From positions 8,122,001 to 8,186,000 of the forward strand of contig OX485803.1 of assembly GCA_950295325.1 (NCBI GenBank): DNA of 64,000 nucleotides. Reading direction: 5' to 3'. Every line of letters starts with the position of its first letter. Position 1 is the first letter of the stretch. Origin of the DNA: Polytrichum commune. Its lineage: Eukaryota; Streptophyta; Polytrichopsida; Polytrichales; Polytrichaceae. The position numbers were made by a program, and so were the translations under genes. Below the pieces are notes generated by a model. That model had not been told where the DNA came from, ran no database searches, and saw nothing but the letters and a program-made list of their open reading frames with translations. This document shows positions 13,314-64,000 of the stretch, piece by piece.

Positions 13314-15116
13314 TTATGAGGAATACATATCCAAAAACTCCTCATCGGTAGGTTCATAGAGGTTGTTTAAATCAGACTCCATCTCATAATTGAGGTATTC
13401 AGGATCATTCATCACGTCACCCACCTCACTATCATATGACAACAACGTTAGTTGATGAAGTAGAGTAGCAACTTCATCAATTTCTACCAAGCGCCTAGCT
13501 TCCTCTATCTCCCTCTCAATAGAGATCGAAATAACACCCGTGTGCCTCCAATAATTTTGAATTGTCGATGTGGTAACTCCCGCACGCCATGCCCGCTCAA
13601 CCATAACAACAACTTGATATATATCAATTGCAAACACCTTGTTTGCACTAAAACAATCTATCTAATATTGAATCACCAACTTTTGGTATTGTGCCTTGAA
13701 AGATGCAATAATGTGTGCATCCATGGGTTGAAAACGACTTGTGATGTTTGGAGGTAGAAATTCTAATTGTGTGACCCTCAAACGTGAACCTACATTTGGC
13801 ACTTGATGACTAGAGAAATTTACTAGGAGCAAAAGCACCTTCTCTTTTTGTGCCAACACCATCCTCTTCTCAAAAATCTAGTATAAACTGCTCAAAAATG
13901 ACTATAGTCATCCACGCCTTTTTATTAGCATCCCACTTAATACCCAAATTCTCCGGATAGTGAATGTTCCTAGACTTAAAGGCCCGCAACTTCAAATACT
14001 GATTAAAAATCAATGGAGGAAGGCAAATGATACCTGTAGCATTTGCAATGAGTGCCACGGTAATCCGCTCCTTTTGCTTCTTCTTCCCAAATAGTCTCTT
14101 CGTAGCCAACGTTTGATTTGGCTCTAACCTGTAAAAAAGACCCGTCTCATCCATGTTAAAAACATCATCGGTATCATATTCGGATACAATAGCTTTGATC
14201 TCCTCCATCCTCCTCAATACCACTGTTGAAGTGTCAAAAGCAACATCTTCATTGTGACACGTGTATGCCTTCATGTTGAATTTTTTCTTGAATTTGGTTA
14301 CCCACCCATGTGAAAAGTAGAGTTCCTTCTCACTAGGATCTCTAGGTTGCAAAGCATATAATTGATGTGTTGCAGCTACCAACAGATCATTGGATATGGT
14401 TGCGCCCTTCTCTTGCATTGTTGTAAACTAGTTGAAAGTAGCTTGCTCCACTTCTGGACATTGCACCTTCCTATTGCGCTTTGAATTAGCCAAATGACCC
14501 ACATCAAAAGCGGTAAGTGAGTCTTTCTTCTTCAAGACTCTACCAATAGTCATCTACAAAATTGAAGTATCAAATTTGACATTTGCCCACTTTGCACGGG
14601 TAGATCACTCCATTGTCAAGTTGAACATCACGTGCGACCAAAAAAAATCTTCTTTTGGTAAGTTGCACCACCAAAATGGGTCAAAATTTTATCAAATTTT
14701 TTTCATGAGTAGATATACACAGTACCTATGACATACTTAAAAATGGTAACGAAATTTGATGATTTGTTTTTTTCATAAAACATACCGTTTCTAACTAGAA
14801 TGACACAGAATTGAACTAAAACAATTACTAAAAAAAATTAAAGATGACTAAAAATTTCAGAAAACTATTCAAAAGTTACTATCAATGGTTATGTATATGT
14901 AGAAAAAAAATCATAAATTTTAAAATTATATATGGCATGTAATATAGGGGTAGCAAACTTTGTCCGCACGTGGTGTTCAATTTGACAAGGAGTGATCTAC
15001 CCGTGCCACTTTGTCAATGCCTTGTTACTAATTTTCATCCCTAAAGCCACCATGCTCTCATAATGGGAAATGATCTCTAGCTTCTCCTTAAAGGTGAACT
15101 CTCTACCCTTGCCCAT
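13314..15116 (-). pseudogene. pogo/Tigger-like transposase (CENP-B N-terminal + DDE_1), broken
   Basis: Starts at the ATG at 15116 with a psq/CENP-B-type helix-turn-helix (MGKGREFTFKEKLEIISHYE). A 411-bp insertion (14595-15005) interrupts it after residue ~40. It then continues through the CENP-B DNA-binding region (YFSHGWVTKFKKKFNMKAYT), the DDE core with first Asp in FNMDETGLFYRL, the second-Asp region at ~13815 (reads LLLVNFSSH, so the usual Asp appears lost) and the third Asp in RFQPMDAHIIASF, ending at a TAA at 13314. In-frame stops lie near 14545, 14430 and 13662, and a frame change lies near 13866. The acidic C-terminal tail is typical of Tigger proteins. Function when intact would be cut-and-paste transposition at TA sites. 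Confidence 0.88.
14595..15005. mobile_element. 411-bp MITE, hAT-type by 8-bp target duplication
   Basis: Terminal inverted repeats of about 50 bp begin CACGGGTAGATCACTCC on both ends (left at 14595, reverse complement ending at 15005) with few mismatches. The 8-bp sequence CCACTTTG flanks it directly on both sides (14587-14594 and 15006-15013). An 8-bp duplication and CA...TG ends fit hAT. The interior is AT-rich and non-coding. It sits inside the first part of the pogo transposase, so it inserted later. Confidence 0.88.
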
Positions 15117-52610: not shown

Positions 52611-55392
52611 CTATTGCAGGAAGTAACCAGAAAGGAAGAGGGCAAAGAAAAACAAGAGGGCACCATAGATGACGAGACTCTTTTGCCCCGACGTCAGCGA
52701 GTTCCCACCCAACCCGAATTGTTGGTTCTGGGCAAACCCAGCCACTTCCACACTCTTGCTTTGGAAGTAGCTCTTGGCTGCACCACATGTGGGACACCTC
52801 CAATCCGCGGGGAGGTCGGTGAAATATGTACCTGCGTTGACTGGGTATGTGTTGTCTCCCTTAGCCTCCTCGTACACGTGCCCACATGACCTGCATTCAT
52901 GTTTACCCGTGTTTATAACGGCAAATCTTTCCTCCAGGCCTGGAAACATACCATCATCACAGCCCACAATTAGGAATCTGAATATTTATCCTCGTAAGTA
53001 TTTGTATGTTCAAATGTTCAAGACTTACAAATAAATTCAACCAGTGACTCATGAAACAAGAATCAAGAGAGATAGTTAATCCAAAGATTTTCAAGTTCCG
53101 TACTCAATACAAAGCAATCAAAAGGAAGCAAAAAAAAGAGGAAACGCATCACACATGTGAGCAATGGCCAAATGGTGGTGGCAAGCTACTTCACCAGGGA
53201 GCCATCCACAACAATCTACACTGACTTTTTCAGTTCCCAACAGTGGATCTTTGTCTTGAGTAACTTGTGCTCCTTGTCTCCAGAGGTAATGGGAAGACTC
53301 AAGCAAATTGTTGTTTGGCATGTGTACTAAGACCTCAAATTCGACTCAAATAAACCAAGAGAGTGAAGGAAAAAAACCCTGATTTAGGAGGGACAAAAGA
53401 CTTCAAACACCTGGAATTCCAACTGAAGAAATAAGGTAGTATCAGACAAGAAAAACAGCAGAGTCCTCTTGACTACAATGTTCATCAGAATGTCCAGCAA
53501 TCATGTATCACAGTTTTTGTGAACTAAAGTTACGAGATCCTCCCATAGCAATGTAGAACTTTTGTTAATTTTACGAGCTCCTGAGCAGCCCTATGGCTAC
53601 ATTTTGTAAATAAAAATCAGAGGCTTGAGCCTCACAAAGTTTGTGACCTCATTTGATTATACTGAAAACCCTTGTCCATACTGTTGGAGTAGATACTGTC
53701 AAATGAGCGATTCCAATTGATCAACTCAATGAACAGAAGACCAATCCCAATCAACTTGAACCTGTAATTTGTTGAAAACCAAATCTTGTGAGATCTTCAT
53801 CGACTTTGGGTATGAGAATGTGATTGCTGTCGGCTTAGACATTGATAAAATAGTGCTGATCTTCAAGTACAGTAGCACATTACTATCATGCTATCATGAC
53901 TGATTATTCTGAAACAGCTGACCGACATCCTGTGACAGGATGTTGCATATTTAAGATGTGTGCATTAAAGCATGTTTCCAAGGGTCTTTTGAGGATTGTC
54001 ACAAAAGAGAAGTAGTAGGCACTAGGTATCAAAGGATCAGATTCATACGGTTAAGATTCAGAAGATACTTTTAATCCTCCCATAGTGAATTTAGAAGTAT
54101 TTCCTTCAAAAATTTATCACAACCCCAAATCTTCTTGTTTTGATAAGAAACTTGACTGGCTACAATCATAAATATCATAGATTGATGGGAAACCGCAAAC
54201 ATCATACATTCTTCAAGTGCGCTTCATAAACGGGACGGCCCAAATGTCCTGTGGAATGTAGTTCACGAACTATTTGTGATTTGGGACTCAGTGCACTAAG
54301 AGATGACTATGTATTTCGACCCAACGAAGAAACATATTTTCCTTGAATTTTACTACGTGGCATACTTACATTGCTCGAGACCGACTTGAATCTCACGTGC
54401 AAACTACATTCCGGCACTAATAGAGATGAAACAGAGGACCCTTTACAGTGGAGCGGTGACTCAGACGGTAATGCGCGAAGCATTCTTGAATCTTCTTTCC
54501 TACCACACAGTGCCAAGATATGCAAGCCAATTCACGTTTTCACAGGCAGGAGAACCCCTGAGATCCGCTCTCCATCCAGAAAGACAAATGCGGATATTGA
54601 ATGCTACGTGTCATCCCTACATGGGTTAGGATCCGCTTGAATCCCACGTGGAGCCTACATTTCTGCGCCAGTAGAGATGAAATAGCACACCCTCAGCGAT
54701 AGACCTTCGATTCAGTTAGTTTATTGAATCTTCTCTCGAGCCAAATTCACGAATTCACCAGCACAGTTACAGCTAATGATCTAGAAACCCAATTGCGGTA
54801 TTGGTTTATCATATCCCCACGTGTCGCTCTTGCATTGGTTGAGGCCCCATGTATCCCACCTGAGAACCACATTTCGGCACTAGGAGAGTTGAAACGGAGT
54901 TCGCTCTACAGTAGAACAGCGAATTGGTAATGCATGAAGCATTTTTGAATTCTCTCTCCTACCACACAGTGGTAAAAATCTACGAGCCACTTCAAGAACT
55001 CGCCCCCCGCGTTCCGTTCCGCTAACTATCCAAAATCACAAAATGTGGGTACTGATGAAATTGAGGTCAGAAATCCATTGCTCACCTCGTCGAGAATCGA
55101 TTTGCATTGGCTCCTCGATCTCCCGCATGGTGTCCACGGGACTGGGCTTGGGATTGGGCTGCTCCTGTCCGCCGCCCGCATTGTCCCGCTCGTTGTCCTG
55201 GACCTCCACCGACATGCAGCAGGGCGCCCGCCTGCGCCTCGAAACGGCTACAAACTTAGTTCGCAGCAGCGAGGAGAAGGTCGCTACACCAGCAGGGCGC
55301 GCGGAGTAGGAGGTGGACGGCGCCAGGCCCAGCGGGCTGGACAGCGCCGACATGGCCATCGCCGTCCCGGATGCGCTCGTCGCCATGGCCAT
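52611..55392 (-). CDS. RBD1: plastid membrane rubredoxin (RBD1/RubA homologue)
   Basis: Matches Arabidopsis At1g54500 (RBD1), the thylakoid rubredoxin needed for photosystem II accumulation (RubA in cyanobacteria). Two exons on the minus strand: 55392-55086 and 52939-52611, with a 2,146-bp GT-AG intron; 211 residues. Exon 1 encodes a Ser/Ala/Arg-rich N-terminus fitting a chloroplast transit peptide (ends about residue 55, ...SRRRRAPCCMSVEV) and an acidic linker. Exon 2 encodes LEERFAVINTGKHECRSCGH, the rubredoxin fold with iron-binding pairs C-x2-C (CRSC) and C-x2-C (CPTC) and WRCPTCGAAKSYF, then the conserved FAQNQQFGLGGNSLTSGQK and a C-terminal membrane span (YGALLFFFALFLSGYFLQ). The start ATG has a second in-frame ATG two codons on. 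A TATA-like TTTATACA lies upstream at about 55485-55492 on the minus strand. The gene appears intact. Confidence 0.95.
54389..54995. repeat. three diverged tandem units with ACGT-core motifs in the RBD1 intron
   Basis: Units of about 210-250 bp start near 54389, 54640 and 54850. Each has the order: CCCACGTG-like box, a TACATT(T)C-GGCACTA(G/A) segment, GAGATGAAA or GAGTTGAAA, and (units 1 and 3 only) GAAGCATT-TTGAAT followed by CCTACCACACAGTG. Perfect G-boxes CACGTG occur at 54394-54399 and 54645-54650, and ACGTGTC motifs at 54606-54612 and 54819-54825. They sit in the part of the intron nearest exon 1. Confidence 0.75.
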
Positions 55393-58300
55393 GGCCGCAA
55401 GAGGGCGGGGCGGGCGAGCGAGCGAGTGAGTTGTGGATAAGAAACAACAAGCCTTGGCTGGGCGACACTCCCTCCCCTCTCTTGTATAAACTTAACTTAT
55501 CAACCGAGGCTCTTTGTTGAATCGGGAACATGCCTTTGGAACATCCCATTCAACCATATTTTCCTACGCCTCCTCCCTTCTTATTGGCCAAGTGCAATCC
55601 TCACATGAGCTTGTTAGAGGGAGCCCATGGGACCACCTTATTTTCTCCCTCACTACCATTTCTTAAGCCCTAATAAGCGTCTAAGAGGCCCTACATAACA
55701 TTACTAAGCAACCGCTGCATGATGGTCTCTTTTTAATGAAAAGGCTGCAATTAAAAAAACCTTTGTTAATGTACAATCGTTTGTCGGAAAAGTTCACAGT
55801 TTACAGCTTGAGTGCTCCCCATAAACGGGGAATTCCAATAATTAAAGAAGAAATTATGCTCATGTCAAACATGGTGCTACGGAACGCGACCAAGGAGTTG
55901 TTGTATGTTATGTATTCGGGGGAGAGAGGGAAAAAGGGAATAATTGTATACGAGTGTGGCTCCCATCCATCCAACATAAATCTTGATCCCTTAAAGTTTG
56001 TTGCAGATTCATCTCAAATGGCCTCAAGTAGACTAATGTGGGGTCTTTAAAGCTAGTTTTGGTGTCAAATCAATTAAAATAAGTAACCATCAGGTTGCAT
56101 ACTATTTGAGGGGTTTTATGTCGATGGATGAGCGGTACACTAATACCCAATAATTCCCTCTATGCCTATCTAGGCCAATACATGTATAGTACATGTAATT
56201 GAGCTACATATTTTCATGTTCAGTCAATTATGCTAAAAAATGACCCTTAGAAAATTAGTCAATTTTCCAGTTCTTTGATGTTGATGTCAAATGTGATTGT
56301 ATGTTTATTTTATTTTATTTGTCATAGAAAAATGTACAAAATACATCACAAAATGTACAAGTATAATAAAATATGGTTTTTAGACTTGATGAGGTTGGCT
56401 TGTAGAAGTTGTGTTTATGGCCGTATATTTATTCCCTTGGTCTTTATAAAGGATTAAAAGACCAAGGGGCACAAATTACCCCTATACACCATTTCTACAA
56501 GCCTCACAAGTTTAGAAAGAGCATTTTTCATGTTTGTGGCTTCGGAATTTTAATTAGTGCATTATCTTAAGTCAAGGTGAAATCAAAATAGATCATATTC
56601 GATATTGATGATCAATATATTATGTATGTACTTGCATCCAAGGACATCCATGATGTGTATTTAAACCCAAATCTTCCAAGATATTAAGATATGAAATTGA
56701 TTTTAAAAGCGCAATTGAATGATAATTTAACTTTAGAACTGGTCAAATATGAAACGAGATATGAATAAGAAATAAGGTTGACACTCTCCCCCCTCTAACT
56801 TACTTATCATTTCAGGCTCATGTTGAGTCAAGAACATGTCTTTGGAAGATCCCTTGAAGCACACCTTCCAATGCCTACTTTTTTATTGGGCAAGCACGAT
56901 ACATGAGCTTTGTTAGAGTAAATTAGAGGGAGCCCACATGACCATGCAAGTTTTTTCACTACCATTAGCTTTTGAAGTTTTTAAAGGCATGGCTATATGT
57001 TTGTCCCTTCATTCAACCAAAATTGTTCATTTTCACATGTTTTGCCTGGGGAATCAATCCATGTGTGATAAATGGATTTTTAGAGAATGGTGGTGAGGGG
57101 GGAGGGGGATATTTTAATTTTCATATTCTTTTCTCACCAATGATGAAGTGATAGCTTAAACCCAAGGTTTGAAGGACACGCTATCTAAACTTAACTCCAA
57201 ATCAATCAAAATTATTCCAAGCCATATTTTCAAATTTGAAAGTGAATGTAAATTTCCAAAACGCATATTTTTTCTTGTAAATATTGGACTAACCACCAAG
57301 CCCCCTTATCCATTCCAATAATGATTGCCATTGGTTAAATTTTATTCACTGCCTTAAACTACTCCCCACATAAGTCCCTCTTACCCTTTGGTGTTGAAAG
57401 CCACAATGTCAAACCATAAGTACATGTGCCCAAACTCCGCATTGCTACCCAAAACCCTAAATGAACCACGTGTACCGAGCTTTATTTTGTTTGTTTATTT
57501 GGTTTACTTTTACTCTCATTACAATGCTACTCTCCCTTCTCCAAATGACATATAAAACCTCCCTCAAGATGTATTAAGGTTTAGCCTTTCATTTTAGTAG
57601 TTATTCACAAACCTCCCCTTTGTGTATTTTCCTATGGTCGGTCCCACGATGAATGAATTTTAAAGACCCTATACTTCTCCTAGTGATTTTTTCTAATTTT
57701 ACACATGTGGAATTCATTGTTTTTTACATATAGTTATCTAAATTATATCAAGCGACCCCCCCCCCCAACTCCTTCAAGAGTCAAGACTGTTTGATTACAT
57801 TTGCCCCATTGGATAGTGTAACAAGATTTGGACGATGGCTTTCCACATAATAATAATAAGAAGAAGAAGAAGAAGTTTAGAGATGTTCACCAGAAATTAA
57901 AAACATATTGTAGTGTCTAGGTGTAATATAGAGATAGGATTATTTTTCCCTCCAATTTGATGTTGTCACTAACAAAATTCTAGATATTAATTTGGTTTGT
58001 ATTGTATACACAAGGGGAACCATAGAACAATGGATTAGCTAAGAGGTCATATAATGTGTGAGACTTGTGTGCTAGACATTCCCACACTTATGATTCAATG
58101 GAAATCACAATGTGTGACACATCTTCATATGTAGAGGTTTACAATTTATTGAAAAAAATATGCACCTTGTGTATGTGCAAGAAGTGAAGAATGGGTAGCC
58201 ATGCCTCGGACTCCAATCAAAAACAAAGACAACCTATTACTTTTGGTGCACTCCACTTGACACCATGTAAATGAGGGAATACTATCAAAAATAAAAAACC

Positions 58301-59930
58301 ATCATTTGATGTTGATCATTATAAGCCCCATTAGCTATCTTTGTCAGTTGGAAGGGTGTTTCAACCACTTCCATTAATGGATTTAACAATGAAATAAAAC
58401 GATTTATTGTCCTCTCCACTCAATTAGAATTTCAACAACAACACAATCATGTTGGTGTTACTCGTCCATATTAAAAATGTCAATAATCCAACCATATCAT
58501 ACCATAAATGAGTTACTCACAATGGAATCTAACAAAATCATCATGTTTTTGTTCAATCAATGAGACTGAAGGTCATCTTTCCATGCATGCATCATTTAGG
58601 TAAGCGATCATTTGCCCGAAATATTTCAAACGTTCGTTGCTTTCGGCAAACATATTAGCTTCATCTAAAACCTAGGAGAACATGCATGTTTACACATGAA
58701 ATGCTTATTGGAGTTTCATAATCTCTCATAGTCCTAAATCAATGCAAAGTTTGTCACCTCTAAGATAGCAAAACCTTCATAATGCTCTCATCATCTTGTA
58801 GTATTTTTCATGTTTTCTACCATAGTTGATGACCTCATATGCATTGCACACGTGCATTGAGCAAGCTAAGCACTATAAGGTCGACCATGGGGTTCATGAT
58901 GCCAATTTCTTTCTTTTTCTAATCATCAACAAATTTAAGGTTGTCTTCCAATTGACTCATAAAGAGAAACAATACCAAGATTTAGGTCACAAATGATATC
59001 AAGAGAGATAGCTCCAAGAAAATGACCAAAAAAAACTATTTCATTGTTGTGTACTACATCAAGATTTATCTAAGTGCAAAATTGATGTTCTCCTCTACTC
59101 GGTCATCCTTCATCTCCCCCTTCAACAATGTGATGTCTAAGGAAAAAACTCACATTTTGCATCTTTTCCTCCAAGGTAGAAATTTGATTTTGCACCACTA
59201 TAAGTTCTTTGATTTTTGTGATGTCCTTTATGATCTTAGTTTTAAAAGGTGGGTAATCTTCGGCTGCAGCAAACTAAGATTTGCAAAACACATAATCAAC
59301 ACACAAAAATTGACAAAAATTAATTCAAAGAAGTAAATAAATAAATAAAATTACGTAGTTGCATGCATGGTAGTGAACTCATTCTCGGTTGTATTACCTT
59401 GCACAAGAATGTTGGTGAAACAGCTCAACAATCCCATTTTGCTTGTCATTACGCCTCTTGAATTGTTTGAAAGAATCTCCCTTGTCCCAACCACGAGACG
59501 TCATTGCTACACACAACCAAAGCTCCAACCAAAGCTCCACTAGAGCTTTATCTTTAGTATGAGCATAACACAAACATTAGCCCGGGCATTGATTTGTCTT
59601 TCTCAATTGACATTTGCTTCTTCTCATTCTTGTCAATCCACACTTCTAATTTTTGTGCCGTTTGAATTTCTAACACTACCATTATTGGTGTTTTCATGCA
59701 CATACACATGCTTCAAATAAATAAATAAATGTATTGCTTAAGTGATTGGTGCCATGAGGAACAAAGTGAGCAAGGTGAAGAGTTTATGAGCATTGGATGA
59801 GGAGCAAAGGAGTTGGTGTTGAGGCAAATTTTATGGGAAATGGGCGTTACAGTGGCACATGATCAACGTTGTTTGTTTATAATTAGGGAATTTTTGTTGT
59901 GGCCCGAGAGAGAGTTGTACTTTTTAGAGC
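55393..59930. other. RBD1 promoter followed by gene-free stretch
   Basis: The first ~150 bp should hold the RBD1 promoter and leader. At 55960-56136 lies a copy of the dispersed repeat with inverted ends (ATCCATCCAACATAAA / TTTATGTCGATGGAT). Simple repeats such as (AAG)n at about 57855-57877 and a C run at 57760-57771 occur. No gene recognised. Confidence 0.5.
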
Positions 59931-60949
59931 TTTTTTCAAAGCTTGATCTTCCTCTTTTCAGAGGCCCTTTCCTTTCTATTCTTCATCAAAATAAAGCAAG
60001 GGTGGGTGGGTGGGATTTTCATTCAATACAAATCTGTTTTCTTATCAAGTCATAGTACCTATCAATGTAACTATGCTTGTGTTGCTAAGTTTTGTATAAC
60101 ATGGAATATCTTGCATTCTCAAGGAGGAACATGTATCCTCACCATCATGCTTCCTTCAACTCAAATCATCTCAAATCATTTTGAAACCCTAACTGTGAGG
60201 TATAAGTGGTCAGAATGTAATGATATGCTCATCACATGACTTTGTATATAGTAGCATAGTCTGGAATAGAGTCTAACTATGCAATGCATTGTGCTTGGTA
60301 GTCAATGTAACTAATGTTACTAATGTTACTAATGTTACCAATGTTACCATCAAGTAATAAGTTGAGTATGTAAGATGTAAGCTTACATATATGTTTCCAT
60401 ACTATCTCAACTACTTTGTAGTGTTTGTGTGCTAATCAAAATACTTTCAAAGCAGTAAATAAGCTTTCATACTTATCATATAATAAGGTGAAAGAGTATT
60501 CAAACTTGAACAATGTACTATTGTTGGTGTAGAAAATGTGAAGAGCTAGCCTCACCTGCACCCGTGCCAACCCAAACATACAAATGTGTGTTAGAAAGGC
60601 GTGTGTCAGGTGTCTTCAGCTAGCTCAGTTGCTATCCATGTCACACATTAACCTCACTTGTCAAGTCCATTGATAGTTTACAACATCAATACTCATTACA
60701 AATCAATGAGTATACTTACCTGCTCTTTTGCCATGTTGTGTAACTTGATAGTAACAATCTTTAGTACACCAAATGTCAGTTTTTTCACCTCCCCTCCAAC
60801 CTTGTTCTCACACTCAAAGTTAAGTGTTTTCCTTCACGCATGTAAAAGAGTTTTCACATGGAAGAATGAGAAGCTTAAGTATTGGTGTGGTCAAGCAAGG
60901 AGGTTGTTTTAGGTCACAGAAACCCTAAAAACGCGAAGTATGGTAACTA
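59931..60949 (+). repeat. ~1-kb direct repeat, copy 1
   Basis: Similar to 63003-64000 along its whole length, from TTTTTTCAAAGCTTGATCTT to GGTAAC, with higher identity in a ~150-bp block (60525-60680) than around it. There is no coding frame. The block holds the foldback at 60544-60627. Confidence 0.88.
60544..60627 (+). ncRNA. candidate structured RNA / MIRNA-like foldback, copy A
   Basis: Stem parts: GAGCTAG (60544-60550) with CTAGCTC (60621-60627); CACCTG (60554-60559) with CAGGTG (60608-60613); ACCCGTGCC (60561-60569) with GGCGTGTGT (60599-60607; two G-U pairs, one mismatch); and an inner stem AACATAC (60576-60582) with GTGTGTT (60587-60593). An unequal 3/7-nt internal loop separates the basal stem. 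The size fits plant miRNA precursors, but I do not recognise a known mature miRNA, and the strand is assumed. Confidence 0.4.
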
Positions 60950-62327
60950 TTCTTTACCATAGTATTTTAACCCATGGTTAAGTTTAGTTCAGCCTTTTAA
61001 CTGTGGTGTGGATTCCCTTTAGGTGTCTCAATCCTATTGGAATGCTCATATTAAATTGTCAATAATGTTACTTTTTAGTTTTAAAGGCAAAATCAAGAGC
61101 AAAGCGAGGGAGAGAGCTGACTAATCTTGTCTTGATTATTGTCTTATCCTGTTAGGATATGTCATCACTATACAGGTAAGGTTAAGTTATGTAATGACAA
61201 CATACATCCCTTGTTAGGGTCCCGGTAATCAAGTATATTACTCATTCTTCATATCTCATCCTTCCCCAAAAGAGGCTTGTCAGAAGAGTTTCACCTTTTT
61301 GGTATTATGTAGACTATACATAAGAATACATAATGTTATAAAGACTGAATTGATATAATTTCAACTGATCTAGTTAACTCATAACCAATAGAGAAGTCCT
61401 TTGTTTGTTGTTTACTGAAGTAGTCACCCCATCCTGTGAAATGGTTGTATATATACTCCGAATAGGAAGTTGAATACCCTCATAGGTTAATACTCCCCAT
61501 CATATTTCAAGTATGGAGATATATATGTATACATATCAATGTATAAATTTCTCATAGTTCCCAAATATTTTCAGAGAGCACTGGTTAGTCGAGAATCAGT
61601 ACGATTCCAACTATTATTGCAAACTCCATATAATTAGTGTAGACATCTGTACCTAAACAGTGGTCTAAATTACTCAGCATATAGTTTGGTCAGCACTTAA
61701 TGAGGAGCCGAATTACTCATTTCTTAATATATGGCAGGTAAGTAGATATATAGATATATATCTTGATTACTAGGGAATCAATTTGATTTCAGCCACTTCA
61801 GTCCACTGTGGTCAGTAATGTGAACTTAATACATATTAAGTAATCCGACCTGCCCATCTCACCATCTGGTCATCAATGAACATAAACTAACAGACAGCAT
61901 ACCAACATATAAGTATTTTTCCACTTGCACCAGAATCTTGATACCAAATCCTTTCAGGGTGCACATTTTAAGCCAGTCAGAACCATGTAGCTTCAAGAGA
62001 GTATATCTGAGTATAATATGTATGACCGGTCACAGAGTTCTCTTAACTCCGTTTCTTTATTTTGTATAGGAAATCAAGAATTACTGATTTTATTTAGTTT
62101 ACCATATACAATGGTGTGATAGAACTCATAATCGTATTCTTGATATCTTTATTGTATTCCTCAATTGCTTCATATAGAGCATAAGTTGAGGAACTACTAG
62201 AGAATGTAGTATTTAAAGAAAGTATGGTGTAAAAACAAGAAGTACTCCAAATCAATTTCAAGAGCATGAAATCTTTTAGAAATTGAGATGAGTGACCGGA
62301 TCTTCGGAAGGCGTATACCGCTTGTAG
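60950..62327. other. gene-free stretch between the direct repeats
   Basis: AT-rich, with TATATA-rich patches and no coding frame. Its last part, before 62328, is loosely similar in layout to the sequence preceding foldbacks A and C. Confidence 0.45.
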
Positions 62328-62409
62328 AAGAGGTCCTCACCTGTGCCCATGCTCCCCACAATTACAAGAAAAGTTAGTAGAGCGTACAACAGGTGTAAAC
62401 GGACCTTCT
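62328..62409 (+). ncRNA. candidate structured RNA / MIRNA-like foldback, copy B (diverged)
   Basis: Keeps the central TCACCTG...CAGGTGT pair (62338-62343 with 62390-62395) and the TGCCCATGC/CACCCGTGCC-like arm. The basal stem is GGTCC (62332-62336) with GGACC (62401-62405), extended by AGAAG/CTTCTT, and the upper stem is ATGCTC (62349-62354) with GAGCGT (62380-62385). The sequence differs from copy A, yet the arms still pair. Confidence 0.4.
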
Positions 62410-62872
62410 TACTTGTTATCAATGTCAACAAGTTTCAACTCCTTCCTTAGATGTAGGAGGATTTACACCAACTTTACAATTCTCAAAATCATACATATAG
62501 TACTTAGAAAGTAAAATGTCATAAGCACAATTTGTGTTACTCTCATATTGTATGTGCTATGTAAGTTTTTTAGAATTCAAGATCATCTTGCCACCTTGAA
62601 CTCGTCAGAAGCAGAAGCATTGCCTGTCTTGTCCATCTTGAGGTTAGTACTGTGGTAATCAGATGTTACTGCAGTAAATTCTGTGAGCTCAGCAGTCTCT
62701 GTGCACGGAACTTGGTTACAGATCTACAGGTGAAGGATAACACTACTGTAGTGTTCTGTATAGCTATCCTGCAGAGTAGGTGTATGCAGAGATCAGTAGT
62801 TGTGACTTCGGATACAGAGTGACTGCTACAGAGTGAGGCTTAAACTGGTGCTTTGCCGCACTCTGGATCGTG

Positions 62873-62880
62873 TATAAATA
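62873..62880 (+). promoter_or_regulatory. TATA box ahead of direct repeat copy 2
   Basis: TATAAATA in a C/G-richer setting, followed about 25-35 bp on by a plausible start region and then the GA tract. It would drive a plus-strand transcript through foldback C. No equivalent box is seen before copy 1. Confidence 0.45.
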
Positions 62881-62953
62881 TCACTTTCTGCCTGCATATT
62901 TTCCGGGCAGCCCGTGATTGAGACCAGGAAATTCAAGAAGATCAAGAAAACAG

Positions 62954-62958
<5 letters not shown>

Positions 62959-63001
<43 letters not shown>
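62959..63001. repeat. (GA)21 microsatellite
   Basis: Uninterrupted GA run directly before the second 1-kb repeat; a short GAGAGAGAG occurs about 20 bp before copy 1 as well. Confidence 0.95.
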
Positions 63002-63002
<1 letters not shown>

Positions 63003-63009
<7 letters not shown>

Positions 63010-64000
63010 AAAGCTTGATCTTCCTCTTTTCAGAGGCCTTTTCCTTTCTATTCTTCATAAAAATAAAACAAGGGTGGGTGGGTGGGATTCTCTTTCATCA
63101 CAAGTCTATTACTCACCAAAACATAGTATATGTCATTGTAGCTATGAATGTAGTGCTATGTTCTACATCATATGAAGTAGTTTGAACTTTCAACAAGGAG
63201 TATGTATTCTCATTAGAGTGGTTAGATATGTTATCATGTTTCCTTGCTTTCAAATCAAAGTTTGATAGCATAAAGTACTAAAATGTAATGATGTGTGTCA
63301 TGCTCACAAAAACACATTACATATGGCAGCTGAGTTCAAAACATAGTCTAGTATGTCACTACATTGTGCATAATAACTATTGTTACAACCAAGTAATAAG
63401 TTAAGGATGTAATATGTAAACTTACATACCTCACTTGTATGTATTCTCAATATCTCAATTACTTTCTAGAGTTTGTGTACATATCAAGATACTAGTTCAA
63501 AGTAATATATTAACTTTCACAAGTATAAGATTATAAAGTGAAAGAATATCCAAACATGAGTAATGTACTATTGTTGGTGTTGAAAATGTGAAGAGCTAGC
63601 CTCACCTGCACCCGTGCCAACCCAAACATACAATTGTGTGTTAGAAAGGCGTGTGTCAGGTGTCTTCAACTAAGCTCAGTTGCAATCCATGTCACACATT
63701 TACCTCACCTGCCAAGTCCATTGAATGTTTGTAAATACCAATACTCACTACAAAACAATGAGTATACAAACCTGCTCTTTTGCCATATTGTGTAACTTCT
63801 TGGATAGTAACAATCTTTAGTACACCAAACACCATGCACTTTCACACTAGTCTTGCATCCACATTCTAAGCCAAGAGTTTGCTCCTTCAAGCATGTAAAA
63901 GAGTTTTCACATGGAGGAGCTTAGGGTTTAAGTATTGGTTTAGTAAGGTATAGTAGGTGCTTTAGGTCACTGAAAACCCTTAAACATGGAGCGTGGTAAC
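63003..64000 (+). repeat. ~1-kb direct repeat, copy 2 (continues past window end)
   Basis: Second copy of 59931-60949, cut by the end of the window. It could be a duplicated non-coding locus or an LTR pair 3 kb apart; TG...CA ends, a primer binding site and a polypurine tract were not found, which argues against LTRs. Confidence 0.85.
63593..63677 (+). ncRNA. candidate structured RNA / MIRNA-like foldback, copy C
   Basis: Nearly identical to copy A: the CACCTG (63603-63608)/CAGGTG (63657-63662) and CCCGTGCC/GGCGTGTGT stems are unchanged. The basal stem GAGCTAG (63593-63599) pairs with CTAAGCTC (63670-63677) with one bulged A. The only changes in the hairpin top are in the loop. Confidence 0.4.

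What the first reader, a model, noticed from the sequence alone, without database searches (positions are those of the whole stretch)
60544..63677. Three related RNA-type foldbacks whose basal stem changes sequence but still pairs
Copies A (60544-60627), B (62328-62409) and C (63593-63677) share a CACCTG/CAGGTG core stem. In A the basal stem is GAGCTAG/CTAGCTC; in B it is GGTCC/GGACC plus AGAAG/CTTCTT. Both arms changed together, which is the mark of selection on RNA structure. The A/C pair is most conserved exactly at the foldback, more than in the 1-kb repeats around it. There is no coding frame. A clustered, unrecognised MIRNA-like family, or another structured RNA, is the simplest reading.
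Basis: partly seen in the sequence, partly recalled or inferred. Interest (0 to 1): 0.75.

Follow-up and report, generated by a model that had tools for sequence, protein, structure and literature searches.

The report
Conserved RNA fold in retroelement repeats
The three hairpins are copies of a roughly 113-base RNA fold that sits inside the end repeats of a family of plant retroelements which insert into GA-repeat DNA; they are real and look selected, but they are parts of mobile elements and not a cluster of microRNA genes.

Summary
A, B and C fold, share a core, and their basal stems differ in sequence but still pair. They are not free-standing genes: A and C lie in one dispersed 1.2-kb repeat, B in another of 1.85 kb, both flanked by (GA)n. 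For one insertion, five related sites carry uninterrupted (GA)n.

The conserved unit is about 113 nt (helices P0-P4 plus a 13-nt motif), larger than reported; a flank-only pattern has 586 genome matches. In seven B-like repeats it is 86% identical against 36% elsewhere (shuffled floor 26%). A covariance model trained on a third sequence type alone finds exactly A, B and C in the window, 23-29 bits of each score coming from structure. Compensatory changes number 9 against about 1 expected, but a pairwise tree-based test was not significant.

Likely role (inferred): a cis-acting domain of the element's RNA. MicroRNA is unlikely. No Rfam family matches it; the retroelement's class is undecided.

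The parts
59915..61109 (-). A-type LTR-like repeat unit (single copy); '-' is the coding strand of related full elements
   Evidence: 40 scored genome matches to its core (of 138 candidates), 94-100% identical, A and C included; ends compared over other copies; A-type repeat lies 5' of damaged ORF1/ORF2 in L099 and 3' of ORF2 fragments in L058
60536..60648 (+). conserved RNA core, copy A (P0-P4 plus TTGCTATCCATGT motif), given on the strand modelled; the sense strand of related elements is '-'
   Evidence: Covariance model R1, trained on type 2 only: 62.5 bits, E 2e-14; sequence-only model 34.8 bits
60543..60550 (+). P1 5' arm of A, GAGCTAGC (partner 60619-60626)
   Evidence: sequence, slot alignment
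60619..60626 (+). P1 3' arm of A, GCTAGCTC
   Evidence: sequence, slot alignment
61110..61116 (+). (GA)n between A and B
   Evidence: sequence; B copies also have GA on this side, 11 of 11 rows (10 loci and the window)
61117..62958 (-). B-type LTR-like repeat unit (single copy), 1.85 kb; coding strand of related elements is '-'
   Evidence: 14 places (window included) 100% identical over 141 bp and 26 more at 91-97%, 40 scored of 215 candidates; whole unit 98.1-99.8% identical in 10 of 10 fetched copies
62321..62432 (+). conserved RNA core, copy B
   Evidence: R1 57.3 bits, E 5.5e-13; sequence-only 28.5 bits
62328..62335 (+). P1 5' arm of B, AAGAGGTC (partner 62402-62410 with one bulged T)
   Evidence: sequence, slot alignment
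62959..63002 (+). (GA)n tract at the junction of B and C
   Evidence: sequence; long (GA)n on this side in 11 of 11 B-family rows
63003..64000 (-). second A-type LTR-like repeat (C), cut by the window end
   Evidence: 81-84% identical to A over 616 and 166 bp
63586..63699 (+). conserved RNA core, copy C
   Evidence: R1 58.5 bits, E 2.6e-13; sequence-only 35.3 bits

Best explanation
A, B and C are copies of one conserved RNA domain of about 113 nt inside the LTR-like terminal repeats of a diverse family of retroelements in a plant genome (probably a moss). Shown here: (1) the domain has the same helical architecture (P0-P4) and a nearly invariant 13-nt motif TTGYTATCNATGT in three sequence types; (2) full elements carry it in both terminal repeats around ORF1 and a divergent reverse transcriptase; (3) the repeats sit in (GA)n/(CT)n in a fixed orientation, and for one copy related sites exist with an uninterrupted (GA)n; (4) it is the best conserved part of repeats that otherwise barely align. 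Inferred: the element is transcribed from its repeat, so its sense RNA carries the domain, and the domain is a cis-acting signal of that RNA, most likely recognised by ORF1 protein or reverse transcriptase to choose and organise the template. The mechanism step is the weakest; the confidence below is for identity and selection on structure, and I give the binding or packaging role alone about 0.4.
For: Genome spread: 170 exact core matches and 586 matches to a pattern that fixes only the flanks; reversed-pattern control 0 in both. Terminal repeats with the core at both ends: L039 (1598 bp, 100% identical), L040 (1948 bp, 99.8%), L055 (1113 bp, 100%), L057 (840-bp piece, 100%). ORFs; RVT_1 in 4 of 4 ORF2 proteins, below Pfam's cut-off; purifying selection, pN 0.16 against pS 0.86 over 719 codons. 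Island: 7 B-like repeats cut to equal flanks, core 86.1% against 36.1% elsewhere (gaps as mismatches; floor for shuffled sequences 25.8%), or 88.0% against 47.2% with gaps ignored (floor 39.3%). Structure: canonical pairs in three types; 9 compensatory changes against means of 0.91 (0 of 2000 re-pairings) and 1.08 (0 of 300 tree simulations), six slides 0; within 16 type-2 sequences covariation score 0.140 against 0.097, 0 of 500 shuffles; model trained on those 16 finds only A, B and C in the window at E up to 10, with structure adding 27.7, 28.8 and 23.2 bits over a sequence-only model. Insertion into (GA)n. Promoter-like features in B-type repeats: GGGCTGCCC near the (CT)n end in 8 of 8, TATA-like words at 96-123 in 5 of 8.
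Against: A G-test over all column pairs with a tree-based null found 0 of 3741 pairs significant; most covariation lies on the few deep branches between types. In one search two of five measures were weak: pairs with a change on both sides 5 against 3.0 (22 of 500) and further pair types 16 against 15.0 (128 of 500); the tool warns that related sequences can exceed shuffles without structure. RNAalifold on the plain MAFFT alignment of 86 cores gave almost no structure; the architecture rests on my spacing-based alignment. Models R1 and R2 differ in effective sequence number (1.15 and 1.91), so the bit gain is approximate. The promoter-like word is not in the first 150 nt of the L055, L057 or A repeats, and L057 and A have no TATA-like word before the core. 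No transcript or binding data. The full-length parent of the B family was not found; L056 shares only the core with B.
Confidence: 0.75

Rival explanations
1. The core is a splice signal of the sense transcript: on the coding strand it reads CTAAY ... CACAG|GTGAGG, a branch-point-like and 3'/5' splice-site-like arrangement, so the rest of the repeat and leader would be removed as an intron before ORF1.
For: The best conserved part of the variable loop is TTAG (CTAA on the coding strand; by eye), which a hairpin alone does not explain. The GT of GTGAGG is nearly invariant (P2 columns 19-20). L039, L040, L055, L056 and L057 all keep CAGGTGAGG.
Against: The AG before GT is lost in a fair share of copies (CACATG; 9 of 36 unique type-2 rows have A:G at that pair). 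It does not explain P0, P1 or the TTGYTATCNATGT motif. The GTAAG-like donor seen upstream in most type-B cores is absent, by eye, from types A and 2 and from L041/L052.
Confidence: 0.2
2. The core is a self-cleaving or otherwise self-processing RNA, the counterpart of the hammerhead ribozymes of Penelope-like elements.
For: Place in long direct terminal repeats; conserved unpaired stretches (the 13-nt motif, CCC) together with covarying helices. PMC11167929 (passages read) describes a hammerhead at the pLTR-ORF junction of a Penelope-like element.
Against: No Rfam family, ribozymes included, at gathering score on the window; at E up to 2 on four full elements, both strands, the single hit lies outside the cores. 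No known catalytic core was recognised by eye.
Confidence: 0.15
3. A MIRNA-like family producing a 21-22-nt duplex.
For: Stable foldbacks; one 21-nt window of B on the - strand has 3 unpaired bases per arm.
Against: The other five copy/strand combinations have 6-7 unpaired bases in the best 21-nt window; conservation includes the flanking 13-nt motif; such sequences are terminal repeats of mobile elements. Element-derived small RNAs could still exist.
Confidence: 0.04
4. The pairing acts at DNA level (hairpin or cruciform, or a palindromic protein-binding site) and not in RNA.
For: G-U pairs are not much commoner on one strand than on the other (139 cells on +, 168 on the coding strand), as expected for a DNA structure.
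Against: Bulges, asymmetric loops and a nearly invariant 13-nt unpaired motif are unusual for cruciforms (my judgement); the elements presumably replicate through RNA, given their reverse transcriptase.
Confidence: 0.12

Closest known systems
Penelope-like elements (PLE) with pseudo-LTRs and hammerhead ribozymes
   Same: Long direct repeats around the coding region and a conserved structured RNA in or near them (PMC11167929, passages read); PLEs occur in some plants (PMC9033089, passages read)
   Different: No GIY-YIG domain and no hammerhead detected; two ORFs; insertion in (GA)n; relation of the RT to PLE not established
[quoted passage not shown]
   Same: Nearly identical terminal direct repeats, many single-repeat copies, G-rich tract before the 3' repeat
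   Different: Repeats lack TG...CA ends; no protease, RNase H or integrase found by Pfam at E up to 5; fixed orientation in (GA)n and no other target duplication seen
Target-specific non-LTR retrotransposons inserting into simple repeats (recalled)
   Same: Fixed orientation in a simple repeat, as if primed from the GA strand
   Different: Long terminal direct repeats; RT not assigned to that group

Membership tests
plant MIRNA | 21-24-nt duplex with at most about 5 mismatches and small asymmetry (recalled criterion) | tested here: not met
   not met in 5 of 6 copy/strand combinations; met only for B, - strand
plant MIRNA | precise miRNA/miRNA* in small-RNA reads | not testable with these tools
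   no read data
hammerhead ribozyme or other Rfam RNA | match to the family's covariance model | tested here: not met
   0 matches at gathering in the window; 6 sub-threshold hits at E up to 5 in 55000-64000, none over a core; 1 at E up to 2 in four elements, outside the cores
Penelope-like element | long direct repeats (pLTR) flanking the ORFs | tested here: met
   L039, L040, L055, L057
Penelope-like element | GIY-YIG endonuclease | tested here: not met
   no Pfam hit at E up to 5 in 4 ORF2 and 4 ORF1 proteins (filters drop most hits above 0.1). Endonuclease-free PLEs exist, so this alone does not exclude
Penelope-like element | RT of the PLE/telomerase branch | tested here: inconclusive
   weak RVT_1 (E 0.0005-0.008) and group II RT (E 0.001); AlphaFold model too poor to compare (pLDDT 39); no PLE reference in hand
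LTR retrotransposon (Ty1/Ty3) | near-identical LTRs at both ends | tested here: met
LTR retrotransposon (Ty1/Ty3) | protease, RNase H, integrase | tested here: not met
   none in Pfam at E up to 5 in 4 ORF2 and 4 ORF1 proteins
LTR retrotransposon (Ty1/Ty3) | TG...CA repeat ends and 4-6-bp target duplication | tested here: not met
   repeats begin with (CT)n and, in L039, L040 and L055, end AGCTCT(C/A) in coding orientation; GA on both sides of copies. A duplication inside GA could not be seen

The most novel reading that the evidence does not exclude
An undescribed retroelement lineage, neither Ty1/Ty3-type nor canonical LINE or Penelope, with two ORFs and (CT)n-bounded terminal repeats, inserting into (GA)n microsatellites in fixed orientation, whose repeats carry a new family of structured RNA that is a ribozyme or the recognition domain for its reverse transcriptase.
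Probability: 0.35. Interest if true: 0.8.

Novelty: new variant of a known kind. Interest (0 to 1): 0.6.

Why it matters
Terminal repeats of retroelements normally diverge fast. Here one 113-nt stretch stays recognisable while the rest of the repeat is nearly lost and while the reverse transcriptases fall to about 43% identity. That points to a signal the element cannot do without, in an element that could not be placed in a known class and that sits in simple repeats. It gives a defined, testable RNA for the open question of how such elements choose their template. It also warns that covarying RNA domains of dispersed repeats can look like clustered microRNA genes.

Tried and rejected
RNAalifold on a MAFFT alignment of 86 unique cores: energy -0.6 on the + strand and 0 on the other. 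MAFFT shifts the 3' arm between types, so I aligned by fixed spacing from conserved anchors. That parse kept 108 cores, 76 of them unique without the loop; L059 failed, and candidates without the 5' anchor (such as L064) or without the exact 3' motif (C of the window, L044, L045) are not in it. Two type-A rows (L023, L036) were re-slotted by rule.

Pairwise G-test with tree null: 0 of 3741 pairs significant. I kept that result and added tests that ask for complementarity.

Conservation: the first profile of B-like repeats (core 85.5%, rest 29.0%) counted the cut ends of six sequences as mismatches; the recount with equal flanks replaces it.

Strand from G-U pairs: undecided. MFE is lower on the coding strand in 74 of 76, but mean z favours + for type A (-1.94 against -1.07), is about equal for B (-2.69, -2.88) and favours coding for type 2 (-0.34 against -1.75).

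AlphaFold of ORF2 and ORF1 from 4-sequence alignments: mean pLDDT 38.9 and 40.9, so no fold search was run. PDB sequence searches: no meaningful hit. Viral contigs: 56 pattern matches, no relative confirmed.

Paper searches listed no description of such an element; they are term searches of an open-licence library, seen as listings, and do not show that none is in print. Craig et al. 2021 on permuted PLEs is not held. Passages only were read of PMC9033089, PMC11167929 and PMC12477314.

Empty-site test with joined flanks: for L016 the flanks of the copy itself and partial matches only; for L012 five related sites spanning both flanks. My note named L056 as B's parent; one search shows only the core shared, so that was dropped.
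Full report
What the window is. The window is G000:C1:8122001-8186000 in a 408-Mb assembly of 64 contigs, about 406 Mb of it in seven contigs of 42-78 Mb (sizes as listed). XET_C occurs at 21 places, a family I recall as typical of land plants; the window holds a TOR FRB domain and a rubredoxin domain. That it is a moss with n = 7 is my inference; no tool named it.

Observation. A, B and C are present and fold well. A and C belong to a repeat of about 1.2 kb (window 59915-61109; C is cut by the window end) and B to a different 1.85-kb repeat (61117-62958). Blast finds no similarity between A and B, and 81-84% between A and C. A's core has 40 matches scored of 138 candidates. B's core has 40 scored of 215 candidates, 14 of them (the window included) 100% identical over 141 bp, and ten fetched B copies are 98.1-99.8% identical to the window over about 1.9 kb. 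So B is a young mobile repeat.

Insertion site. In 11 of 11 B-family rows (10 loci and the window) there is GA immediately left of the unit and a long (GA)n right of it, on the same strand. The A-family copies whose ends were printed show the same arrangement with few exceptions, such as units joined directly to another unit. Units lie head to tail separated only by GA: A-A in L004/L007 (one locus), A followed by a B-like end in L025 and L034, and A-B-C here. For copy L012 the joined flanks match five related sites across both flanks, and 5 of 5 carry an uninterrupted GA tract of 3 to 17 units there. For L016 no such site was found. This explains the 'clustered' appearance.

Parents. The pattern CACCTGNNCCCRTGCN{30,55}CAGGTG has 170 genome matches and 0 for the reversed control. 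Two pairs 6-7 kb apart led to full elements: L039 (repeats 1598 bp, 100% identical; 7.7 kb in all) and L040 (1948 bp, 99.8%; 8.6 kb). ORF2 has 65 matches in the genome (61 of 123 candidates scored), the full-length ones in two groups, 74-80% and 42-44% identical to L039; twelve rows cover more than 700 residues without a stop. The second group gave L055 (repeats 1113 bp, 100%; 6.3 kb) and L057 (an 840-bp piece, 100%). ORF1 follows the same split. An A-type repeat is the 5' repeat of a damaged element (L099: ORF1 matched only from residue 303, 43-77% to L055; ORF2 pieces 66-76%), and another lies 3' of ORF2 fragments in L058. The parent of B itself was not found: L056 shares only the core with B; B is linked to L039 and L040 by the core and a stretch near the repeat end.

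Proteins. RVT_1 is matched by 4 of 4 ORF2 proteins below Pfam's cut-off (best E 0.0005) in the stretch holding GIPMGFSCSPLW and YIDD, and group II intron RT by L055 at E 0.001. No integrase, RNase H, protease or GIY-YIG appeared at E up to 5. ORF1 has no family above chance and, in three of four aligned proteins, an RG-rich tail. Both are under strong purifying selection: ORF2 pN 0.162 against pS 0.855 (L039-L040, 719 codons) and 0.248 against 0.788 (L055-L057, 716); ORF1 0.124 against 0.846 and 0.230 against 0.726. AlphaFold models were too poor to use.

The conserved core. In seven B-like repeats cut to equal flanks the core is 86.1% identical and the remainder 36.1%, with gaps as mismatches; shuffled sequences give 25.8% for the remainder. 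With gaps ignored the figures are 88.0%, 47.2% and 39.3% (an earlier profile gave 85.5% and 29.0% and counted cut ends as mismatches). In six A-like repeats it is 92.1% against 71.0%. The repeats of L055 and L057 contain the same core in a third form, type 2. The pattern GAAGN{72,100}TTGYTATCNATGTCA, which leaves the arms free, has 586 matches and 0 in the control; about 100 are listed, all on contig C1, and I fetched 40 of them.

Architecture. With fixed spacing from anchors the three types show P0 (5 bp), 2 nt, P1 (8 bp with an optional bulge at or next to the middle of the 3' arm), P2/P3 with a one-base bulge, CC, P4, a variable loop, and on the 3' side TTGYTATCNATGT, which the parse required within one or two letters. 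P0's outer pair is A-T in type A, C-G in B and T-A or G-C in type 2; P1 is GAGCTAGC, AAGAGGTC or GGGYCTGC with matching partners. Weak points are equally visible: P3's third pair is C:A in types B and 2 (22 of 76 paired), P4's fourth is C:A in type 2 (39 of 76), P1's innermost pairs in 55 of 76, and P2's C:G next to the end of the CACCT arm in 57 of 76.

Tests of covariation. Types A, B and 2 have 19, 21 and 36 unique rows. By parsimony 9 double changes keep Watson-Crick pairing and 6 do not. Random re-pairing of the 3' columns gives 0.91 kept on average (maximum 5, 0 of 2000 reach 9), a tree simulation 1.08 (0 of 300), and all six slides 0. A G-test over all pairs with a tree null gave 0 of 3741 significant, I think because most changes fall on a few deep branches. 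Within 16 of the 36 type-2 rows the covariation score is 0.140 against 0.097 in shuffles (0 of 500) and cells paired 88.7% against 85.6% (0 of 500), but pairs changed on both sides are 5 against 3.0 (22 of 500) and further pair types 16 against 15.0 (128 of 500); the slides give scores of 0.015-0.043. A covariance model built from these 16 only finds exactly three matches in the window at E up to 10: A, B and C. It also finds the cores in both repeats of L039, L040, L055 and L057. Against a sequence-only model the structure adds 27.7, 28.8 and 23.2 bits for A, B and C, although none of them was in the training set.

Strand and role. Pairing alone leaves the strand open. A retroelement's sense RNA is the natural carrier. 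In 8 of 8 B-type repeats GGGCTGCCC lies near the (CT)n end in coding orientation, and 5 of 8 have a TATA-like word at 96-123, several hundred bases before the core; the L055, L057 and A repeats lack the word in their first 150 nt. I therefore read the core as a cis-acting domain of the sense RNA, most likely bound by ORF1 protein or RT. Binding is inference. A splice signal (CTAAY...CACAG|GTGAGG on the coding strand) and a self-processing RNA are the main rivals.

Known or new. No Rfam family matches the cores. Structured RNA in long direct repeats is known from Penelope-like elements (PMC11167929, passages), so the kind has a precedent. This RNA and this combination of RT, repeats and (GA)n insertion did not appear in the listings of the searches made, which is weak evidence of absence.

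Noticed in passing
L039:2321-2420 (-), L040:2449-2545 (-), L055:5890-6010 (+), L057:3720-3850 (-): Just before the 3' repeat, after ORF2, lies another structured stretch, similar between L039 and L040, with possible pseudoknotted pairing (by eye); fold z -2.7, -3.5, -2.0, -2.9 on the coding strand.
   Followed up: partly
start of the leader after the 5' repeat in L039, L040, L055 (coding orientation): A short hairpin follows the AGCTCTC end of the 5' repeat in each of these elements, with different but complementary arms; seen by eye only.
   Followed up: no
window 62905-62913 and the first 100 nt or so (coding orientation) of other B-type repeats: The word GGGCTGCCC is present in 8 of 8 B-type repeats printed, followed by A-rich sequence and in 5 of 8 by a TATA-like word; looks like a promoter. 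Not in the first 150 nt of L055, L057 or A.
   Followed up: partly
window 13870-14418 (-): Fragment of a Tc5/pogo-type transposase (DDE_1 E 1e-10 and HTH_Tnp_Tc5 E 1e-5).
   Followed up: no
L059 and L061: Divergent cores that keep the flanking motif but fit none of the three types well; L059 has its own complementary basal arms (GACC/GGTC, by eye) and failed the slot parse.
   Followed up: partly
L101, L102, L103: Three of the five empty (GA)n sites are followed by GCTGGG, close to the GCTGAC that opens B-family units, so the host repeat may itself be a distant member of this element family.
   Followed up: no
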